Positions 30,291 to 38,339 of a stretch of 64,000 bases of DNA are shown in pieces. The stretch comes from Corallococcus carmarthensis (GTDB lineage: Bacteria; Myxococcota; Myxococcia; Myxococcales; Myxococcaceae): the NCBI RefSeq assembly GCF_003611695.1, contig NZ_RAWE01000016.1, positions 1-64,000 on the forward strand. The letters are read 5' to 3'. The notes beneath the pieces are model-generated. The model had not been told where the DNA came from and ran no database searches. It saw only the letters and a program-made list of their open reading frames with translations. How positions within the stretch are numbered: position 1 is the first letter of the stretch; every line of letters begins with the position of its first letter. Position numbers and translations under genes: made by a program.

Positions 30291-33200
30291 ATGTCCACCC
30301 CTATTGATGGCGGCGCCGCCGCTGCCGCCCGTGCCGCCGCCGAAGCCGCCGCCCGCGCCGCCGCCGAGGCCGCTGCTCGCGCCGCCGCCGAGGCCGCCGC
30401 GAAGGCCGCCGCCGAGCAGGCCGCGAAGCAGCAACAGCAGCAGCCGCAGACGAAGCAGCCCACGGTGAAGCTGTTCCAGAACGATCAGTTCTCCTCGGCG
30501 GGGCCGCAGAACCGCAACGGCGTGAACCGGCTGACGGGTGAGACGACCAACCCCTTCGCCACGCCGCTCTCCTCCAATGGCAACGCGCGCCCGGTCAACG
30601 CCCCGGCGGGACAGAACGTCGCCGCCCCGGCGGCGGAGCCGAAGCCGCCCCACGCGGAGGCGCTGCCCGACAAGGCGGAGGACCTGCCCAAGCTCTTCCC
30701 GGAGCTGAAGGACAAGAAGAAGGAGGACCTGCAGAAGGCCTATGACTCGCTCAACAAGCTGGGCACCGGCTCCTTCTCGGAGAAGGCCACGGCCCTGGGC
30801 GAGCTGGCCTCGCAGTTCCCGGAGACGGTCCCCAACGCGCTGGAGCGCCTGGGCCTCAAGGACGACAAGCTGGCGAAGCTGGCCACCAACTCCGACGCGC
30901 TCACCTCGCTGGGCAAGCTGACGGACCCCAAGGCGAGCAAGACCGACAAGGCGCAGGCCGCCCTCACCCTGGCGAAGGCCGCCGGCGACGCCTTCGCGCC
31001 GGAGGACCTGAAGGGCGTGCTGGACACCGCGCTCAAGGGCCTGCCCGCCGCGGACAAGCTGGTGGGGGCCATTGGCAAGTGGACGGACCCCAACGCCTCC
31101 GCCACCGACAAGGCCACCGCCACGCTGGAGCTGGGCAAGGCGCTCAAGGACTTCGCCGGGGACAAGTTCCCGGCGCTCGCCAACGACCTGCGCAAGCTGG
31201 ACGGGTCGCTGCGCGCCGCGGGCTCCGCCATCACCCTGGCGGACCCCAACGCGTCCACGCAGGACAAGGCGCTGGCCGCCGCGCAGCTCCTGGCGGAGGT
31301 GCCCGACCTCAAGAAGGACCTCAAGGCCTTCACGGACGTCCTCAAGAACGCGGGCGTGAAGAACGCGACGGACGTGGCCCAGCAGGGCACGCAGCTGGCC
31401 AACGTGAAGGTGAAGGGGCTGGATCCGCAGCTCGCGTCCAAGCTCACGCCGGATCAGCTGAAGAAGCTGGAGTCCGCCGCCACCAAGCTGGGCGGTCCGG
31501 AGTCGCTGGAGGGCGCGCTCAAGGGCATCACCGACCCCAAGGCCCTGGACAACCTGGTGGGCCAGCTGGGCAAGGCGGACGCCGCGGCCGGCAAGCGGCT
31601 GGTGAGCGCCCTGGGCGGCATGGAGCACAAGGCCCTCAACGAGGTCCTGTCGGATCCGAAGACGACGGAGCAGTTCGCGAAGCTCGCGGGCAAGCTGGAC
31701 GACGAAGCCGGCAAGGTGCTGTCCAAGCTCGTCACGGACATGGACCCGAGCGCGGTCAAGGCGCTGCTCAAGTTCACGGACGGCGTCGGCGCGGACGCGC
31801 TCAACACCACCGTGAAGGGCCTGGGCCCGCTGCTGGACAAGGCGGGCAGCAAGCTCGTCGGCCAGGGCCTCAAGGTGATGGAGAAGGTGCTGGGCAAGGT
31901 CGGCGTGGAGATCACCGCTGACGTGGCCGGCAAGGTCTTCAAGAACCTGGCGAAGGTCGTCCCGGTGGCGGGCGCGCTGCCCAACGCCATCGACGCGGCG
32001 AAGTACGAGAAGGAATCGCTGGAGCTGCACGGCAAGAACAACGACCTGGGCTACTTCGCGCACACCGCCGCGGCGCTGAACGTCGCGGACGCGGGCATTG
32101 GCATCGCGTTGGACCTCACCGGCGTGGGCGTGGCCGCGGACGTGGGCGCCAGCGTGCTCTTGGGCGCCGCCGAGCTGGCGATGGACATCGGCTTCAGCCA
32201 GGAGAAGGCCAAGTTCGAGGCCGACCCCGAGGGCTACAAGGCCCCGGACTGGATGAAGGCCGTGAACCTGGCGGGCGCCGCGGCCCAGGGCCCCGCGGGC
32301 CTGGCGCACATGGCCGCGTACTACGGGCCGGAGGGCACCGCGCAGCTCATCCAGTGGGGCGTGGAGAAGGCCGCCAAGGGCGCCGTGAAGGCCGCCGAGT
32401 TCGTGGGCGTGTCCCAGGCGGAGCTGGCCGGCGAGGGCCTCAAGGGGGCCGCGAAGGTCATCCACAAGCTGGCGGACGTGGTGCGCAACCCGTCCAAGTA
32501 CGGCGAGGCCGCGGTGAAGGCGGCCACCGAGGCCTTCAACACCGCCATCGAGAAGGGCGGCGAGCTGGCGAAGGAGGCCAAGGAGGTCCTCGACGGCGTC
32601 ATCGACGGGGCGAAGAAGCTGGGCGAGAAGGGCCTGGAGACGCTCAAGTACATCGCGCAGAACCCGGGCGAGGCCGCGAAGAAGGCGCTCGACGGCATCA
32701 AGAGCGTGGTGGACTCCGGCGTGGACCTGGCCACGGACGCCGGCAAGGCGCTCTACAAGCAGGCCGTCTCCACGCTGAATGACCTGAAGGCCGGCTACGA
32801 CAAGCTCACCGGCGCCGCGAAGGAGAAGGCCAAGGAGCTCATCGACGGCGCGACGACGCTCGTGTCCAACACGGTGAACAAGGCCAAGGAGCTGGGCGAG
32901 AAGGGCCTGGAGCTCTTGGCCTGGACGGCCCAGAACCCGGGCGAGGCCGCGGCCAAGGCGAAGGAGGCCCTTGGTGACGCCCTGGCCAAGGGCGGCGAGC
33001 TGGCGAAGAAGGCCTGGGAGTCCGTGAAGGACCTGGGCGCGAAGGGCGCCGAGCTGGCGGAGGGCCTGGTGAAGGGCCTGGCCAACGCGGGCGAGCAGGC
33101 CGTGGAGACGCTCAAGTACATCGCCAACAACCCCGGCGAGGCGCTCACCAAGGCCGGCGAGTGGGTGGGCGGCGCGCTGTCGGACATGGCCCGCAAGGGC

Positions 33201-33629
33201 GGCGAGCTGGCCTCCAAGGCGGCGGGTGCCATCAAGGACTTCGTCGACAACCGCGTCACGTGGGCCAAGGACTTCGCCAAGGACCTGCTCAAGGACGGCG
33301 TGGAGTCCTTCAAGAACGTCGCCAAGGCCTGGAAGGACAACCTCACGGAGGGCGGCAAGGAGCTGCTCGTCGCCGTGGCGGACCTGGGCGACGCGGGCGT
33401 GGACGCGCTCAAGGACCTGGCCGGCGCGGGCGGTCAGCTGGCGGAGGCCGCCGTCAACCACCTGGGCGACATGGCGAAGAAGGGCGTGGATGCCGCCAAG
33501 GACGCGCTCGGGACCCTGGCGGACCTGGGCGGCGAAGTGGGCGAGCTGGCCGGGGATGTGGCCGGCAAGGTGAAGGACTTCTTCGACAGCATCATCCCAG
33601 ACGACATCCCCGGCATCCCGGGCATCTAG
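30291..33629 (+). CDS. Giant repetitive helical protein with hydrophobic centre, no signal peptide
   Basis: 1112 residues; TAGGAG lies eight bases before the ATG. Residues 9-50 are an Ala-rich coiled coil (AAAARAAAEAAARAAAEAA pattern), then poly-Gln. A disordered link holds FQNDQFSSAG (Asp65-x-Phe67). Residues about 210-345 hold three repeats of the form [LW][TA]DP[KN]AS-x2-DKA. A hydrophobic Gly/Ala region at about 540-690 (VVPVAGALPNAIDAA, LNVADAGIGIALDLTGVGVA, ADVGASVLLGAAELAMDIGF) looks like a membrane-inserting hairpin. The C-terminal 370 residues are LEA-like amphipathic helices with recurring NPGEAA turns (YIAQNPGEAAKKALDG; WTAQNPGEAAAKAKEA; YIANNPGEALTKAGEW). Known families: none. It could be a pore-forming or membrane-coating protein; this is inference. 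Confidence 0.8.
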   Translation: MSTPIDGGAAAAARAAAEAAARAAAEAAARAAAEAAAKAAAEQAAKQQQQQPQTKQPTVKLFQNDQFSSAGPQNRNGVNRLTGETTNPFATPLSSNGNARPVNAPAGQNVAAPAAEPKPPHAEALPDKAEDLPKLFPELKDKKKEDLQKAYDSLNKLGTGSFSEKATALGELASQFPETVPNALERLGLKDDKLAKLATNSDALTSLGKLTDPKASKTDKAQAALTLAKAAGDAFAPEDLKGVLDTALKGLPAADKLVGAIGKWTDPNASATDKATATLELGKALKDFAGDKFPALANDLRKLDGSLRAAGSAITLADPNASTQDKALAAAQLLAEVPDLKKDLKAFTDVLKNAGVKNATDVAQQGTQLANVKVKGLDPQLASKLTPDQLKKLESAATKLGGPESLEGALKGITDPKALDNLVGQLGKADAAAGKRLVSALGGMEHKALNEVLSDPKTTEQFAKLAGKLDDEAGKVLSKLVTDMDPSAVKALLKFTDGVGADALNTTVKGLGPLLDKAGSKLVGQGLKVMEKVLGKVGVEITADVAGKVFKNLAKVVPVAGALPNAIDAAKYEKESLELHGKNNDLGYFAHTAAALNVADAGIGIALDLTGVGVAADVGASVLLGAAELAMDIGFSQEKAKFEADPEGYKAPDWMKAVNLAGAAAQGPAGLAHMAAYYGPEGTAQLIQWGVEKAAKGAVKAAEFVGVSQAELAGEGLKGAAKVIHKLADVVRNPSKYGEAAVKAATEAFNTAIEKGGELAKEAKEVLDGVIDGAKKLGEKGLETLKYIAQNPGEAAKKALDGIKSVVDSGVDLATDAGKALYKQAVSTLNDLKAGYDKLTGAAKEKAKELIDGATTLVSNTVNKAKELGEKGLELLAWTAQNPGEAAAKAKEALGDALAKGGELAKKAWESVKDLGAKGAELAEGLVKGLANAGEQAVETLKYIANNPGEALTKAGEWVGGALSDMARKGGELASKAAGAIKDFVDNRVTWAKDFAKDLLKDGVESFKNVAKAWKDNLTEGGKELLVAVADLGDAGVDALKDLAGAGGQLAEAAVNHLGDMAKKGVDAAKDALGTLADLGGEVGELAGDVAGKVKDFFDSIIPDDIPGIPGI

Positions 33630-33869: not shown

Positions 33870-33935
33870 GCAACTCGCTGGGAGACGCCTGGATAATCGG
33901 GGCAGGAATCACAGCCGCCACCGAGGAATCCCCGC

Positions 33936-35519
33936 ATGAGCCTGAACGCGACCACGTCCCAGCGCACGAACTCTGTCTTCTCGAATCGTTCCCAGGCTGT
34001 GACGACGAGCGCGGTTCGCAGCACGAACCCGAACGCCATCTTGTCGCAGTACAAGCCCACGGGCGCCTCGGCGCGCACGGCGGCGCAGGACGGGCTGCAG
34101 CCGGGCGTGGCTGCGTCGACGAAGATGGCGCAGACGGACCTGGCGCGGCTGCAGAAGTTCAAGGGCAACATCGAGGCGGCGGCCGCGAAGCACGGCCTTC
34201 CCCCGGCGCTCCTGGCGGCCATCGCGAGCCGTGAGTCGCGCGCGGGCGCGGCGTTGGACCGCACGGGCCACGGCGACGGCGGCAACGGCTTTGGCGTGAT
34301 GCAGGTGGATCACCGCTTCCACACGACCAAGGGCGGCCCCACCAGCGCCGAGCACATCGACCAGGCGGCGGGCATCCTCAAGGGCTACGTCAACGACATG
34401 AAGAAGGCGCACCCGGACTGGTCCGAGGCGCAGCAGCTTCGTGGCGCGGTGGCGGCCTACAACTCCGGCCCCGGCAACGTCCGCACCCAGGCGGGCATGG
34501 ACGTGGGCACCACGGGCAATGACTACTCCAACGACGTGTGGGCGCGCGCGCAGGCGCTGGCGCCGCACTTCGGCGGTGCCGCGACCAACACCGGCACCAA
34601 CACCAACACCCAGAACACCACGCGCCCGGCGCAGACCGCCGACACCTTCGAGCCCGCGGGCACCAAGAAGCCGGCGACGAAGTGGAGCGCCGCGCCCTCG
34701 ATGGACCAGGTGAAGGCGGGCGGCAACAACCTGCGCGAAGGCATGCAGGGCCCGGCGGTGAAGCAGATCCAGGAGATGCTGGGCGTCCCGGCGGACGGCA
34801 AGTTCGGCCCCGTGACGAAGAAGGCCGTGGAGGACTTCCAGCGGGCGAACGGCGTGAGGGCGGGCAGCAACGCGGGCCAGGTGGGCCCCGACACGTTCAA
34901 GGCGCTGCAGGGCAAGCGCCCCGGCAGCACCAACACCACCAACGGGACGAACAACACCCCGGGGACGAACAACACCCAGGGGACGAACAACAACGGCGCG
35001 GTGCTGGGCAACGGCGTCCGCATCAACACCAACGACCCCACGCTGAAGAAGCTGGCCACCTCGCGCCTGAACAACGGCCAGACGGGCTACTGCGTGCGCA
35101 CCACGCTGGACAACATGAGCCGGCTGGGCATCCCGAACACGCCGGCGGCGACGGGCAACGACCCGAACAACCCGCGCGGCGGCATGGCGCAGATGCTGCG
35201 CAATGGCTGGGAGTCCATCCCGTTCCCGGGCGCCAAGCAGCAGGCCATCAAGAGCCCCTACGGCAACGCCACCGCGAACGTGGTGACGGCGGACCAGTAC
35301 CGGAAGCTCGTGGCGGACGGGAAGGTTCCGGACGGCGCCATCATCTTCCAGTCCCGCCACGGCTGGGACTACAGCGGCGGCTCCAAGGGCAACGACATGG
35401 GCATCGTGCGCAACGGTGGCAAGACGACCCACAACTACCAGGACATGAGCTCCATCATCTACTCGGACTGCAAGGAGGTCGTCATCCTGGTCCCGAAGGG
35501 CGCCATCCAGCGCGACTGA
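33936..35519 (+). CDS. Goose-type lysozyme with peptidoglycan-binding and CHAP-like cysteine domain, no signal peptide
   Basis: 527 residues, three domains. Residues about 55-215 match goose egg-white (g-type) lysozyme: AIASRESRAGAALDR (catalytic Glu100), GHGDGGNGFGVMQVDHR (Asp114, Asp125) and MDVGTTGNDYSNDVWARAQ, close to the bird sequence over the whole domain. A Thr/Asn linker holds TADTFEPAG (Asp236-x-Phe238). Residues about 255-325 are a PG_binding_1 domain (EGMQGPAVKQIQEMLG; ADGKFGPVTKKAVEDFQ). After an N/T/G linker, residues 345-527 contain TGYCVRTTLDNM (Cys386) and FQSRHGWDY (His475), a CHAP or NlpC-like papain fold. It should cut glycan and possibly peptide bonds of murein. No signal peptide or membrane segment is present. 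Confidence 0.9.
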   Translation: MSLNATTSQRTNSVFSNRSQAVTTSAVRSTNPNAILSQYKPTGASARTAAQDGLQPGVAASTKMAQTDLARLQKFKGNIEAAAAKHGLPPALLAAIASRESRAGAALDRTGHGDGGNGFGVMQVDHRFHTTKGGPTSAEHIDQAAGILKGYVNDMKKAHPDWSEAQQLRGAVAAYNSGPGNVRTQAGMDVGTTGNDYSNDVWARAQALAPHFGGAATNTGTNTNTQNTTRPAQTADTFEPAGTKKPATKWSAAPSMDQVKAGGNNLREGMQGPAVKQIQEMLGVPADGKFGPVTKKAVEDFQRANGVRAGSNAGQVGPDTFKALQGKRPGSTNTTNGTNNTPGTNNTQGTNNNGAVLGNGVRINTNDPTLKKLATSRLNNGQTGYCVRTTLDNMSRLGIPNTPAATGNDPNNPRGGMAQMLRNGWESIPFPGAKQQAIKSPYGNATANVVTADQYRKLVADGKVPDGAIIFQSRHGWDYSGGSKGNDMGIVRNGGKTTHNYQDMSSIIYSDCKEVVILVPKGAIQRD

Positions 35520-35526
35520 TGATGGC

Positions 35527-37122
35527 CTAGTGGGACGTGTCCACGGCCCGGTCCGGCAACGGGCCGGGCTTCTTCATGAAGACGATGAGGAAGGACGCGG
35601 CGAGGAAGGAGAGGGCCAGGAACAGGAAGCCGCTGTTGAAGGCCTTCACCAACGCCTGTTCGCTGATGCGGTGCTGGAGGACCGCGAGCGCGGCGGAGTC
35701 CGGCGCGAAGAGGTGGCTGCCCGGGCCGCCCTTCAGCGTGGCGAGCTGTTCCTGGACCCAGGGGTTGTACGCGTCCACGTGCGACGTGATGGCGGCGTAG
35801 GCGCGGTGGGACTCGCGGTCCAGCAGGGTGCTCATCCACGCGGTGCCGATGGAGGCACCCAGTTCCCGGGTGAGGCTGAAGAGGGCGGTGCCGCCCGGCC
35901 GCTGGGACGCGGGCAGGGCGGTGACGGCGAGGAAGGTGAGCGGGACGAAGCCGAACCCCGTTCCCACCGCGCGGATGAACAGCGGCGTCACCAGCGCGGG
36001 CAGGTCCGCCTGGGGCGTCAGGTGGGCGTTGAGCCACAGGCTGGTGAAGATGCCGGTGTTGGCCACCACCAGCAGCAGGCGCGGATCCACCCGCGTCACC
36101 AGCCGGCCGGCCAGCGGGAAGATGAGCAGTTGGATCCAACTGCCGAAGAGGAACACCCGGCCGATGTCGATCGCCTTGTAGTGCATCACCGTGCCGCAAT
36201 AGAGCGACAGCAGCAGCGACCCCGCGAAGATGGCGGTGCCCACCAGGAAGTTGAGCGCCGTCGCCGCGGAGTAGGCCCGGTTGAGGAAGATGCGCAGCTC
36301 CACCACCGGGTGGCGCGTCTCCAGTTCATGGCTGACGAAGCCCACCAGGCTGATGCCCGCCACCGCCGCGAGCAGGGTGATGGTGGCGCTTTCGAACCAG
36401 CCCTCGCGGTTGCCCTCCTCCAGCACGTACTGGAGCGACACCATGCCCACCGCGAGCAGTCCGATGCCCAGGCGGTCCACCGGCGCGCGCTCCGCCACGA
36501 AGCCCGGCTGATGGATGTGCCGCCACGCCACCCACGCGGCGAACAGGCCGAAGGGGACGTTGATGAGGAAGATCCAGTGCCAGCTGGACAGGTCGATGAG
36601 GTAGCCGCCCAGCGTGGGCCCCAGGAGCGGTCCGGTGATGGCGCCCAGGCCGAACAGCGCCCCGGCCATGCCGTGCTGCCGCTCCGGATAGCGGGAGAAC
36701 AGCACGCTCTGCGACGTGGGGATGATGGCGCCGCCGCCCAGGCCCTGGAGGATGCGGAACACCACCAGCGACAGCAGGTTCCAGGACAGGCCGCACAGCA
36801 CGCTGGCCGCGGTGAAGATGAGGATGGACGCCGTGTAGTAGCGCCGGAAGCCGAAGCGCTTCAGCAGCCAGCCCGACAGCGGGATGATGGTGATGTTCGC
36901 CATCGCGTACGCGGTGGACACCCAGGCGATCTGATCCAACGGCGTGCCGAAGCTCGCGCGGATGTCGTTGAGCGCCACGTTGACGATGGAGATGTCCAGG
37001 AAGGCCATCAGCCCGGCGAACATCGCGCCCGCGGTGATGAGGGTCTTGTTCCCCTGGAGCAGCGTGGCCTCGTCTCCGGCCGGAGCAGGGGCCGGAGCAG
37101 GGAGTCTGGCGGCGGCGCTCAT
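35527..37122 (-). CDS. EmrB/QacA-type MFS multidrug efflux transporter (DHA2)
   Basis: 531 residues with about 14 membrane helices, the DHA2 topology. Motifs: FLDISIVNVALNDIRASFG in TM1, STAYAMANITIIPLSGWLLK, LLKRFGFRRYYTASILIFTA (motif A region) and RILQGLGGGAIIPTSQSVLF (motif B/C). It couples drug export to proton influx and works with the HlyD-type adaptor encoded upstream; start and stop codons overlap (ATGA at 37119-37122), so translation is coupled. No outer-membrane TolC gene follows; a housekeeping TolC is presumably recruited. Control is likely by the TetR protein heading the operon. The gene converges on the lysozyme with a 7-bp gap. Confidence 0.93.
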   Translation of the reverse strand: MSAAARLPAPAPAPAGDEATLLQGNKTLITAGAMFAGLMAFLDISIVNVALNDIRASFGTPLDQIAWVSTAYAMANITIIPLSGWLLKRFGFRRYYTASILIFTAASVLCGLSWNLLSLVVFRILQGLGGGAIIPTSQSVLFSRYPERQHGMAGALFGLGAITGPLLGPTLGGYLIDLSSWHWIFLINVPFGLFAAWVAWRHIHQPGFVAERAPVDRLGIGLLAVGMVSLQYVLEEGNREGWFESATITLLAAVAGISLVGFVSHELETRHPVVELRIFLNRAYSAATALNFLVGTAIFAGSLLLSLYCGTVMHYKAIDIGRVFLFGSWIQLLIFPLAGRLVTRVDPRLLLVVANTGIFTSLWLNAHLTPQADLPALVTPLFIRAVGTGFGFVPLTFLAVTALPASQRPGGTALFSLTRELGASIGTAWMSTLLDRESHRAYAAITSHVDAYNPWVQEQLATLKGGPGSHLFAPDSAALAVLQHRISEQALVKAFNSGFLFLALSFLAASFLIVFMKKPGPLPDRAVDTSH

Positions 37123-38339
37123 GGCGCGTCCGTGTAGACAGTGGCCTCGGCGCTCATGCCCGGACGCAGCTCCACGTCCGGCGTGCCGTCCAGGCGGATG
37201 AGCACCGGCACGCGCTGGACGACCTTCACGAAGTTGCCGCTGGCGTTGTCCGGCGGCAGCAGCGCGAAGCGGGAACCGGTGCCGTGCGACAAGCTCTCCA
37301 CGTGCCCGTCGAACTCGCGCCGCCCGAACATGTCGAAGCGCACCCGCGCCCGCTGGCCGGGCTGCACGCGCTCCAGCTGGTCCTCCTTGAAGTTCGCCAC
37401 CACCCACACGTCGTCGCGCGGGACGATGGCCATCAGCGACCGCTCCGGGCCCACCGTCTGGCCTTCCTCCACCGAGCGGCGCGACACCACCCCGGCCCGC
37501 GCCGCGCGCACCGTGGTGTAGGAGAGGTTGAGCTCCGCCATCCGGACCGAGGCCTCCGCCTGCTGCACGCGGGCCTCCGCCAGGGCCACCGCCGCGCGCG
37601 ATGAGGCCAGCTGCTCCTCCGTCGTCCGCGCGGCCGTCAGGCGCCCCTGCGCCAGCGTCACGCCGCCCGAGGAGCCCGTGAGGGCCGCGGTCGCGGACAG
37701 CCGGCGCGCGCGGGCCTGCTCCAGCTGTGCGTCCGCCGCGTCCAGCTCCGTCTGGCGCAGGTCCACGTCCGCCTGGGCCAGGGCCTGCTGTTCGAAGAGG
37801 GACCGGGCGCGGCCCAGGTTCGTGGCCGCGAAGGCCTGGCGCGACACGGCGGCGGCGACCTCCGCGTCCGCCTGGGTGATGGCGGCCTTCGCGGCCTCCC
37901 GCGTGGACGTGGCGGACGTGAGCCCGCCTTCCGCCTGGGTGAGGGACGCGGGCGCGGTCCTTTCGGTGAGGGCCAGCGCCGCCTTCGCGCTGTCGGCGGA
38001 GGCTCGCGCGGCCATCAGGTCCGCCTTCGCCGCGGCCAGCCGGGCGGCGAAGTCCTCCGGATCCAGCTCCACCAGCACGTCGCCCGCGGCCACGCGCTGG
38101 TTGTCCACCACCGGCACGCGGCGCACCTGCCCGGCCACGCGCGCGGCCACGTTCATCACCCGGCCCTCCACCTGCGCGTCGTCCGTCGTCTGCTGACCCA
38201 GGTGCAGGAGCGTCCAGCCTCCAGCGAGGAGCCCCACGCCCACCGCCAGCCCACCCATGAGCAGCGGCGTGCGGCGGCGCTCCTTCACGGCGGGCGCGGC
38301 GGGCGCGTCAGCGGAGGGGAGGGTGGCCACGGCGCTCAT
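37119..38339 (-). CDS. HlyD/EmrA-type periplasmic adaptor
   Basis: 406 residues. One N-terminal membrane anchor (LLMGGLAVGVGLLAGGWTLL), then the first half-lipoyl segment (RVAGQVRRVPVVDNQRVAAG), a long coiled-coil hairpin (about 95-265, rich in Ala/Glu/Gln) and the second lipoyl half with the beta-barrel (YTTVRAARAGVVSRRSVEEG; VWVVANFKEDQLERVQPGQR). It bridges the MFS pump to an outer-membrane channel. The long hairpin fits the EmrA group. It overlaps both the regulator upstream and the pump downstream by four bases. Confidence 0.92.
   Translation of the reverse strand: MSAVATLPSADAPAAPAVKERRRTPLLMGGLAVGVGLLAGGWTLLHLGQQTTDDAQVEGRVMNVAARVAGQVRRVPVVDNQRVAAGDVLVELDPEDFAARLAAAKADLMAARASADSAKAALALTERTAPASLTQAEGGLTSATSTREAAKAAITQADAEVAAAVSRQAFAATNLGRARSLFEQQALAQADVDLRQTELDAADAQLEQARARRLSATAALTGSSGGVTLAQGRLTAARTTEEQLASSRAAVALAEARVQQAEASVRMAELNLSYTTVRAARAGVVSRRSVEEGQTVGPERSLMAIVPRDDVWVVANFKEDQLERVQPGQRARVRFDMFGRREFDGHVESLSHGTGSRFALLPPDNASGNFVKVVQRVPVLIRLDGTPDVELRPGMSAEATVYTDAP

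What the first reader, a model, noticed from the sequence alone, without database searches (positions are those of the whole stretch)
33936..35519. Animal-like goose-type lysozyme fused to two more murein-acting domains
Residues 55-215 follow bird g-type lysozyme closely, including the catalytic Glu (100), two Asp (114, 125; spacing 14 and 11 against 13 and 11 in goose) and the far C-terminal stretch MDVGTTGNDYSNDVWARAQ. It is joined to a peptidoglycan-binding domain and a CHAP/NlpC-like domain with Cys386 and His475. A three-part lysin without a signal peptide in a predatory bacterium is a strong candidate for prey lysis, or the remnant of horizontal exchange with eukaryotes.
Basis: partly seen in the sequence, partly recalled or inferred. 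Interest (0 to 1): 0.62.

Follow-up and report, generated by a model that had tools for sequence, protein, structure and literature searches.

The report
Goose-type lysozyme fusion in myxobacterium
A predatory soil bacterium (Corallococcus) carries a three-part enzyme whose first part is a true relative of the lysozyme in goose egg white, joined to a wall-binding part and to a little-known protease-like part that also occurs in tail-region proteins of viruses of marine cyanobacteria; bacterial goose-type lysozymes of this kind were already published, but I found no description of this combination or of the virus links.

Summary
ORF 33936-35519 (+, 527 aa, Corallococcus) has a genuine goose-type lysozyme at residues ~36-211: 168 bits, E=3e-48 to cod lysozyme. 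A profile of bacterial and phage homologues scores 205-220 bits on animal g-type lysozymes and at most 21 on any other solved GH23 enzyme. The model aligns best with cod (Z 17.2) and goose (17.1), against MltF 11.1. E100, D114 and D125 align with the animal catalytic residues. PG_binding_1 (272-324) is confirmed. The C-terminal domain (368-522) matches no Pfam family, but its confident model (pLDDT 92) is papain-like, nearest murein amidases (Z 9.5-7). Cys386 is invariant, His475 is not; an invariant Asp (D487) seems to sit where CHAP/NlpC enzymes have His. The animal-like lysozyme of Corallococcus and relatives is already published, with opposite proposed directions of transfer (PMC11576321, PMC12855814); my tree decides neither. 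Apparently new: the architecture, the C-terminal family shared with cyanophage tail-region proteins, and stand-alone g-type lysozymes in Mu-like phages. No member inspected has a classical signal peptide, so non-Sec delivery to prey walls is the best, unproven, explanation.

The parts
33936..35519 (+). Whole ORF, 527 aa three-part murein hydrolase
   Evidence: orthologues
33923..33927 (+). GAGGA Shine-Dalgarno-like box 8 bases before the ATG
   Evidence: sequence
33936..34040 (+). N-terminal 35 residues, Ser/Thr/Asn-rich, predicted disordered, no signal peptide
34041..34568 (+). Goose-type lysozyme domain, residues 36-211
34233..34235 (+). Glu100, aligned with the catalytic Glu of goose lysozyme
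34275..34277 (+). Asp114, aligned with the first catalytic-site Asp
34308..34310 (+). Asp125, aligned with the second catalytic-site Asp
34749..34907 (+). PG_binding_1 domain, residues 272-324
   Evidence: 33 bits, cut-off 23
35019..35516 (+). C-terminal papain-like domain, residues 362-527, no Pfam family, PHROG 13530
35091..35093 (+). Cys386, invariant, at the start of a helix
35358..35360 (+). His475, not conserved in distant homologues
35394..35396 (+). Asp487, invariant, at the apparent place of the usual catalytic His
   Evidence: position inferred from strand order
30291..33629 (+). Upstream 1112-aa protein of unknown family, conserved neighbour in Corallococcus-type loci; relation to the lysin unknown

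Best explanation
The gene encodes a modular peptidoglycan-degrading enzyme of Corallococcus. The g-type lysozyme domain would cut the glycan strand (E100 as acid, D114/D125 positioning water), PG_binding_1 would hold the enzyme on the wall, and the C-terminal papain-like domain would cut an amide bond of the stem peptide with Cys386, so that glycan and peptide are attacked together. Having no signal peptide and a disordered Ser/Thr/Asn-rich N-terminus, it is most likely kept in the cytoplasm and released into prey or competitors by a non-Sec route (contact-dependent Kil/T3SS*, T6SS, or cell lysis) to break down prey walls. Shown: domain identities, alignment of the lysozyme's catalytic residues, fold class of the C-terminal domain, purifying selection, absence of a hydrophobic signal. 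Inferred: enzymatic activity, the catalytic residues of the C-terminal domain, the export route, the role in predation.
For: g-type identity. PG binding. C-terminal domain: papain-like model (pLDDT 92), nearest structural neighbours include phage endolysin Lys2972, BACUNI_02947 amidase, T6SS amidase Tse1 and MepS; it caps other murein-hydrolase architectures in myxobacteria and lies in large cyanophage proteins near the baseplate hub/tail lysozyme gene. Related proteins keep the g-type lysozyme but carry a CHAP-like or C39-like domain instead. No signal peptide. Purifying selection on both terminal domains. In Myxococcus the T3SS* is needed for prey lysis (PMC12075869). Export-gate and T6SS sheath families are present in this genome.
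Against: No secretion-system gene was recognised among the ten neighbours scanned. T3SS gate genes are nearly universal in the family (94/96) and T6SS presence follows the clade, so co-occurrence says little. Only 31 of 96 genomes sampled in the family have the domain, so it is not essential for predation. The C-terminal domain lacks a conserved catalytic His and may not be an amidase. No expression or secretion data.
Confidence: 0.6

Rival explanations
1. A domesticated phage-type lysin used on the producer itself: for programmed lysis of part of the population (releasing nutrients or other toxins), or for wall remodelling in sporulation or germination.
For: No signal peptide, as in many endolysins; stand-alone g-type lysozymes occur in Mu-like phage settings and the C-terminal domain in cyanophages.
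Against: No phage gene recognised nearby; no holin identified; long-term conservation in Corallococcus as a multi-domain protein.
Confidence: 0.2
2. A type VI secretion cargo effector acting in the periplasm of competitors, comparable in logic to the dual amidase-lysozyme effector TseP.
For: All 31 genomes with the domain also have the T6SS sheath family; dual amidase-lysozyme T6SS effectors exist (PMC11893102).
Against: The association is confounded by clade; no VgrG, PAAR, Hcp or immunity gene recognised nearby; proteins with the C-terminal domain occur in T6SS-less genomes.
Confidence: 0.12
3. The C-terminal domain is not an enzyme but a wall- or partner-binding domain that lost catalysis, leaving a lysozyme with two binding modules.
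For: No conserved His; no CHAP or NlpC/P60 profile match.
Against: Cys386 and Asp487 are invariant across myxobacteria and cyanophages with other polar residues, which is unusual for a lost active site.
Confidence: 0.3

Closest known systems
Animal goose-type lysozymes (cod 3gxk, salmon 4g9s, goose 153l; GH23 g-type)
   Same: Full domain homology, about 48-50% identity to cod and salmon in the Foldseek alignment, same Glu and two Asp, same fold (Z about 17)
   Different: No signal peptide; fused to PG-binding and papain-like domains; bacterial host
Myxobacterial g-type lysozymes of Mukherjee and Moroz 2024 (PMC11576321), reused in the placozoan lysozyme study of 2026 (PMC12855814)
   Same: Same family; Corallococcus is named in the 2024 paper
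   Different: The passages read treat the lysozyme and its phylogeny; I saw no mention of the fusion or of the C-terminal domain, but full texts and supplements were not read
TseP, dual amidase-lysozyme T6SS effector of Aeromonas (PMC11893102)
   Same: One protein with amidase and lysozyme parts aimed at peptidoglycan
   Different: TseP has an N-terminal Zn amidase and C-terminal lysozyme and is carried by VgrG2; here the order and families differ and delivery is unknown
PHROG 13530 and large proteins of T4-like cyanophages (e.g. syn9 gp15)
   Same: C-terminal domain about 40% identical, with the Cys, Asp and DxNNPRG motif kept
   Different: Embedded in 1000-1300-aa phage proteins next to tail genes, mostly annotated hypothetical
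Papain-like murein amidases: Lys2972, Tse1, MepS
   Same: Fold class, Cys at a helix start
   Different: No sequence similarity found; usual His apparently replaced by Asp; Z of 7-9.5 is only moderate

Membership tests
goose-type (g-type) lysozyme | Sequence nearer to g-type lysozymes than to bacterial lytic transglycosylases | tested here: met
   Profile: animal g-type 205-220 bits, next GH23 (EtgA) 21 bits; phmmer lists no lytic transglycosylase at E<=1
goose-type (g-type) lysozyme | Catalytic Glu plus two Asp | tested here: met
   E100, D114, D125 align with goose and cod residues and are invariant in the ten closest sequences; some distant paralogues lose the Asp
goose-type (g-type) lysozyme | g-type fold | tested here: met
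   Foldseek E=9e-12 to cod; VIA Z 17.2 against 11.1 for MltF; loop 109-117 of low confidence
goose-type (g-type) lysozyme | Hydrolytic muramidase activity | not testable with these tools
   needs an assay
PG_binding_1 (PF01471) | Profile match above the curated cut-off | tested here: met
   33 bits, cut-off 23
CHAP or NlpC/P60 amidase | Profile match | tested here: not met
   No match for the domain alone; only scattered unrelated weak hits over 25 homologues
CHAP or NlpC/P60 amidase | Papain-like fold with Cys at a helix N-terminus | tested here: met
   Model pLDDT 92, helix begins at C386; top matches mostly papain-like amidases, Z 9.5-7; Foldseek alone found nothing significant
CHAP or NlpC/P60 amidase | Conserved catalytic His | tested here: not met
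   H475 and H499 vary; D487 invariant at the apparent His position, inferred from strand order without coordinates
T6SS effector | Linked VgrG, PAAR, Hcp or immunity gene | tested here: inconclusive
   None recognised among ten neighbours by Pfam; the 1112-aa neighbour has no family
phage endolysin | Lies in a phage or prophage lysis region | tested here: not met
   Recognised neighbours are peptidase M24, glycosyltransferase, MFS, HlyD and TetR

The most novel reading that the evidence does not exclude
A signal-less family of modular murein hydrolases in which a g-type lysozyme is paired with a new papain-like domain family using a Cys-Asp rather than Cys-His site, shared with cyanophage tail-region proteins and delivered to prey by the contact-dependent predation machinery, with Mu-like phages as a reservoir through which g-type lysozymes moved between bacteria and possibly animals.
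Probability: 0.15. Interest if true: 0.75.

Novelty: new variant of a known kind. Interest (0 to 1): 0.45.

Why it matters
If delivered to prey, it is a candidate for the unidentified lytic effectors of myxobacterial predation, where the T3SS* is needed for prey lysis. The C-terminal domain, absent from Pfam and shared by myxobacterial hydrolases and cyanophage tail-region proteins, would be a new papain-like family with an unusual site. The phage-borne g-type lysozymes give outgroups for the open question of how animals and myxobacteria came to share this enzyme.

Tried and rejected
Generic SLT assignment: Pfam offers only SLT (25 bits), but ties to g-type lysozymes are far stronger. His475 as catalytic partner: rejected by the conservation count. 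Direction of horizontal transfer: a tree of 32 domains rooted on the Mu-phage copies puts the four animal sequences among Myxococcaceae (81/87), but monophyly of the cellular bacterial copies is not rejected (delta lnL 0.79, AU p=0.39); with only four animal sequences it stays undecided. A first tree with distant GH23 outgroups suffered from long branches. Scan of viral contigs with the window's C-terminal domain alone found nothing; the alignment query found 20 loci. T3SS and T6SS co-occurrence: uninformative because of clade structure. Plasmids: only a PG-binding match. PADLOC: no match for the lysin. Promoter scan: nothing. Profile of the C-terminal domain against PDB sequences: no real match. 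Active-site geometry not measured, since no model coordinates were available.

Full report
Observation. The ORF at 33936-35519 (+) encodes 527 aa. The genome is of the Corallococcus type (10.8 Mb); near orthologues lie in Corallococcus exercitus, interemptor, terminator and praedator, more distant ones in Citreicoccus, Myxococcus and Pyxidicoccus. The start is preceded by a GAGGA box and is conserved.

Lysozyme domain. Residues 36-206 match cod goose-type lysozyme with E=3.3e-48, followed by salmon, goose, ostrich and swan; no bacterial lytic transglycosylase appears at E<=1. A profile of 13 bacterial and phage homologues scores 205-220 bits on animal g-type lysozymes and 21 or less on EtgA, MltF and others. 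The full-length model has moderate confidence (mean pLDDT 66) but aligns best with cod (Z 17.2, rmsd 2.6, 154 residues) and goose (Z 17.1), against MltF 11.1. E100, D114 and D125 align with the animal Glu and two Asp.

Middle and N-terminus. PG_binding_1 is above its cut-off. The first 32 residues are Ser/Thr/Asn-rich, predicted disordered and without a hydrophobic core. Relatives inspected, including a LysM-fused paralogue in the same genome and the Blastocatellia MAG homologue, also begin without an evident signal peptide. This was judged from sequence and hydropathy, not with a dedicated predictor.

C-terminal domain. No Pfam family matches, but PHROG 13530 does (E=1e-26), and tblastn finds the domain in T4-like cyanophages inside 1000-1300-aa proteins near the baseplate hub/tail lysozyme gene. 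In myxobacteria it stands at the end of several different proteins, some with recognisable wall-hydrolase parts, and also alone (most of those partner assignments are by eye). With 25 homologues the model reaches pLDDT 92. Foldseek finds nothing significant, but the second aligner ranks papain-like murein amidases first: Lys2972 Z 9.5, BACUNI_02947 8.1, Tse1 7.4, MepS 7.2; Z under 8 can be a common arrangement. C386, D409, N411, R414, W477 and D487 are invariant where aligned; H475 and H499 are not. Strand order suggests that D487 takes the place of the usual His. I therefore call the domain papain-like and do not file it as CHAP or NlpC/P60.

Selection. Pairwise dN/dS (Nei-Gojobori) against eight orthologues is 0-0.56 in the lysozyme and 0.18-0.35 in the C-terminal domain. 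Linkers are often near or above 1; the peptidoglycan-binding part is 0.26-0.44 against the closest orthologues and up to about 2 against distant ones. These are rough values for GC-rich genes.

Distribution. 31 of 96 genomes sampled in the family have the g-type domain; a phylum-wide sample of 195 genomes that includes these gave the same 31 and no others, with a limited number of candidates scored per genome. Elsewhere: 1 of 396 Acidobacteriota, 1 of 369 gammaproteobacteria and the same one among 398 Pseudomonadota. The gammaproteobacterial copy lies in a stretch with a phage transposase, and an IMG/VR copy lies on a contig with terminase and portal genes; a third, L056, is on a viral contig of less clear type. 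I read the first two as Mu-like from gene content.

Context. The upstream 1112-aa gene is conserved beside the lysin in the six Corallococcus-type loci where it was found (L001-L005, L007) and is single-copy; it was not found within the flanks of the Citreicoccus and Myxococcus loci. Downstream efflux genes vary. No secretion or phage gene was recognised among ten neighbours.

Literature. Two papers already report myxobacterial g-type lysozymes, one proposing transfer from myxobacteria to animals (PMC11576321), the other from animals to a myxobacterial ancestor (PMC12855814); I read passages, not whole papers. My tree, with four animal sequences taken from the alignments and the text of PMC12855814, is undecided.

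Mechanism. Best account: a wall-bound enzyme attacking glycan and stem peptide, released to prey by a non-Sec route. Activities and route are inference. Kil/T3SS* is a reasonable candidate route because T3SS* is needed for prey lysis (PMC12075869), but nothing here links the protein to it. The rivals, self-lysis, T6SS delivery and a non-catalytic C-terminal domain, remain open.

Noticed in passing
window 30291-33629: 1112-aa Ala-rich protein with no recognised family, single copy, just upstream of the lysin in the Corallococcus-type loci examined.
   Followed up: partly
L012 5962-6555; L051 5941-6564; L056 5974-6537: Stand-alone g-type lysozymes of about 190-208 aa in a Mu-like prophage and in viral contigs, matching no PHROG family.
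   Followed up: partly
L014 403-2115 (own genome, contig C49): Paralogue with LysM, C39-like peptidase and g-type lysozyme, also without an evident signal peptide.
   Followed up: partly
L011 4753-7362: Blastocatellia MAG protein of 869 aa with LysM, PG-binding and g-type lysozyme (69% identical in the domain); possible transfer or binning error.
   Followed up: no
window 35527-38339: MFS/HlyD efflux pair between the lysin and a TetR gene was not found at that place in L001-L004 but is present in L005 and L007.
   Followed up: no
L007 6001-7503: In-frame loss of about 35 residues including the DxNNPRG motif of the C-terminal domain in a MAG; real or assembly error unknown.
   Followed up: no
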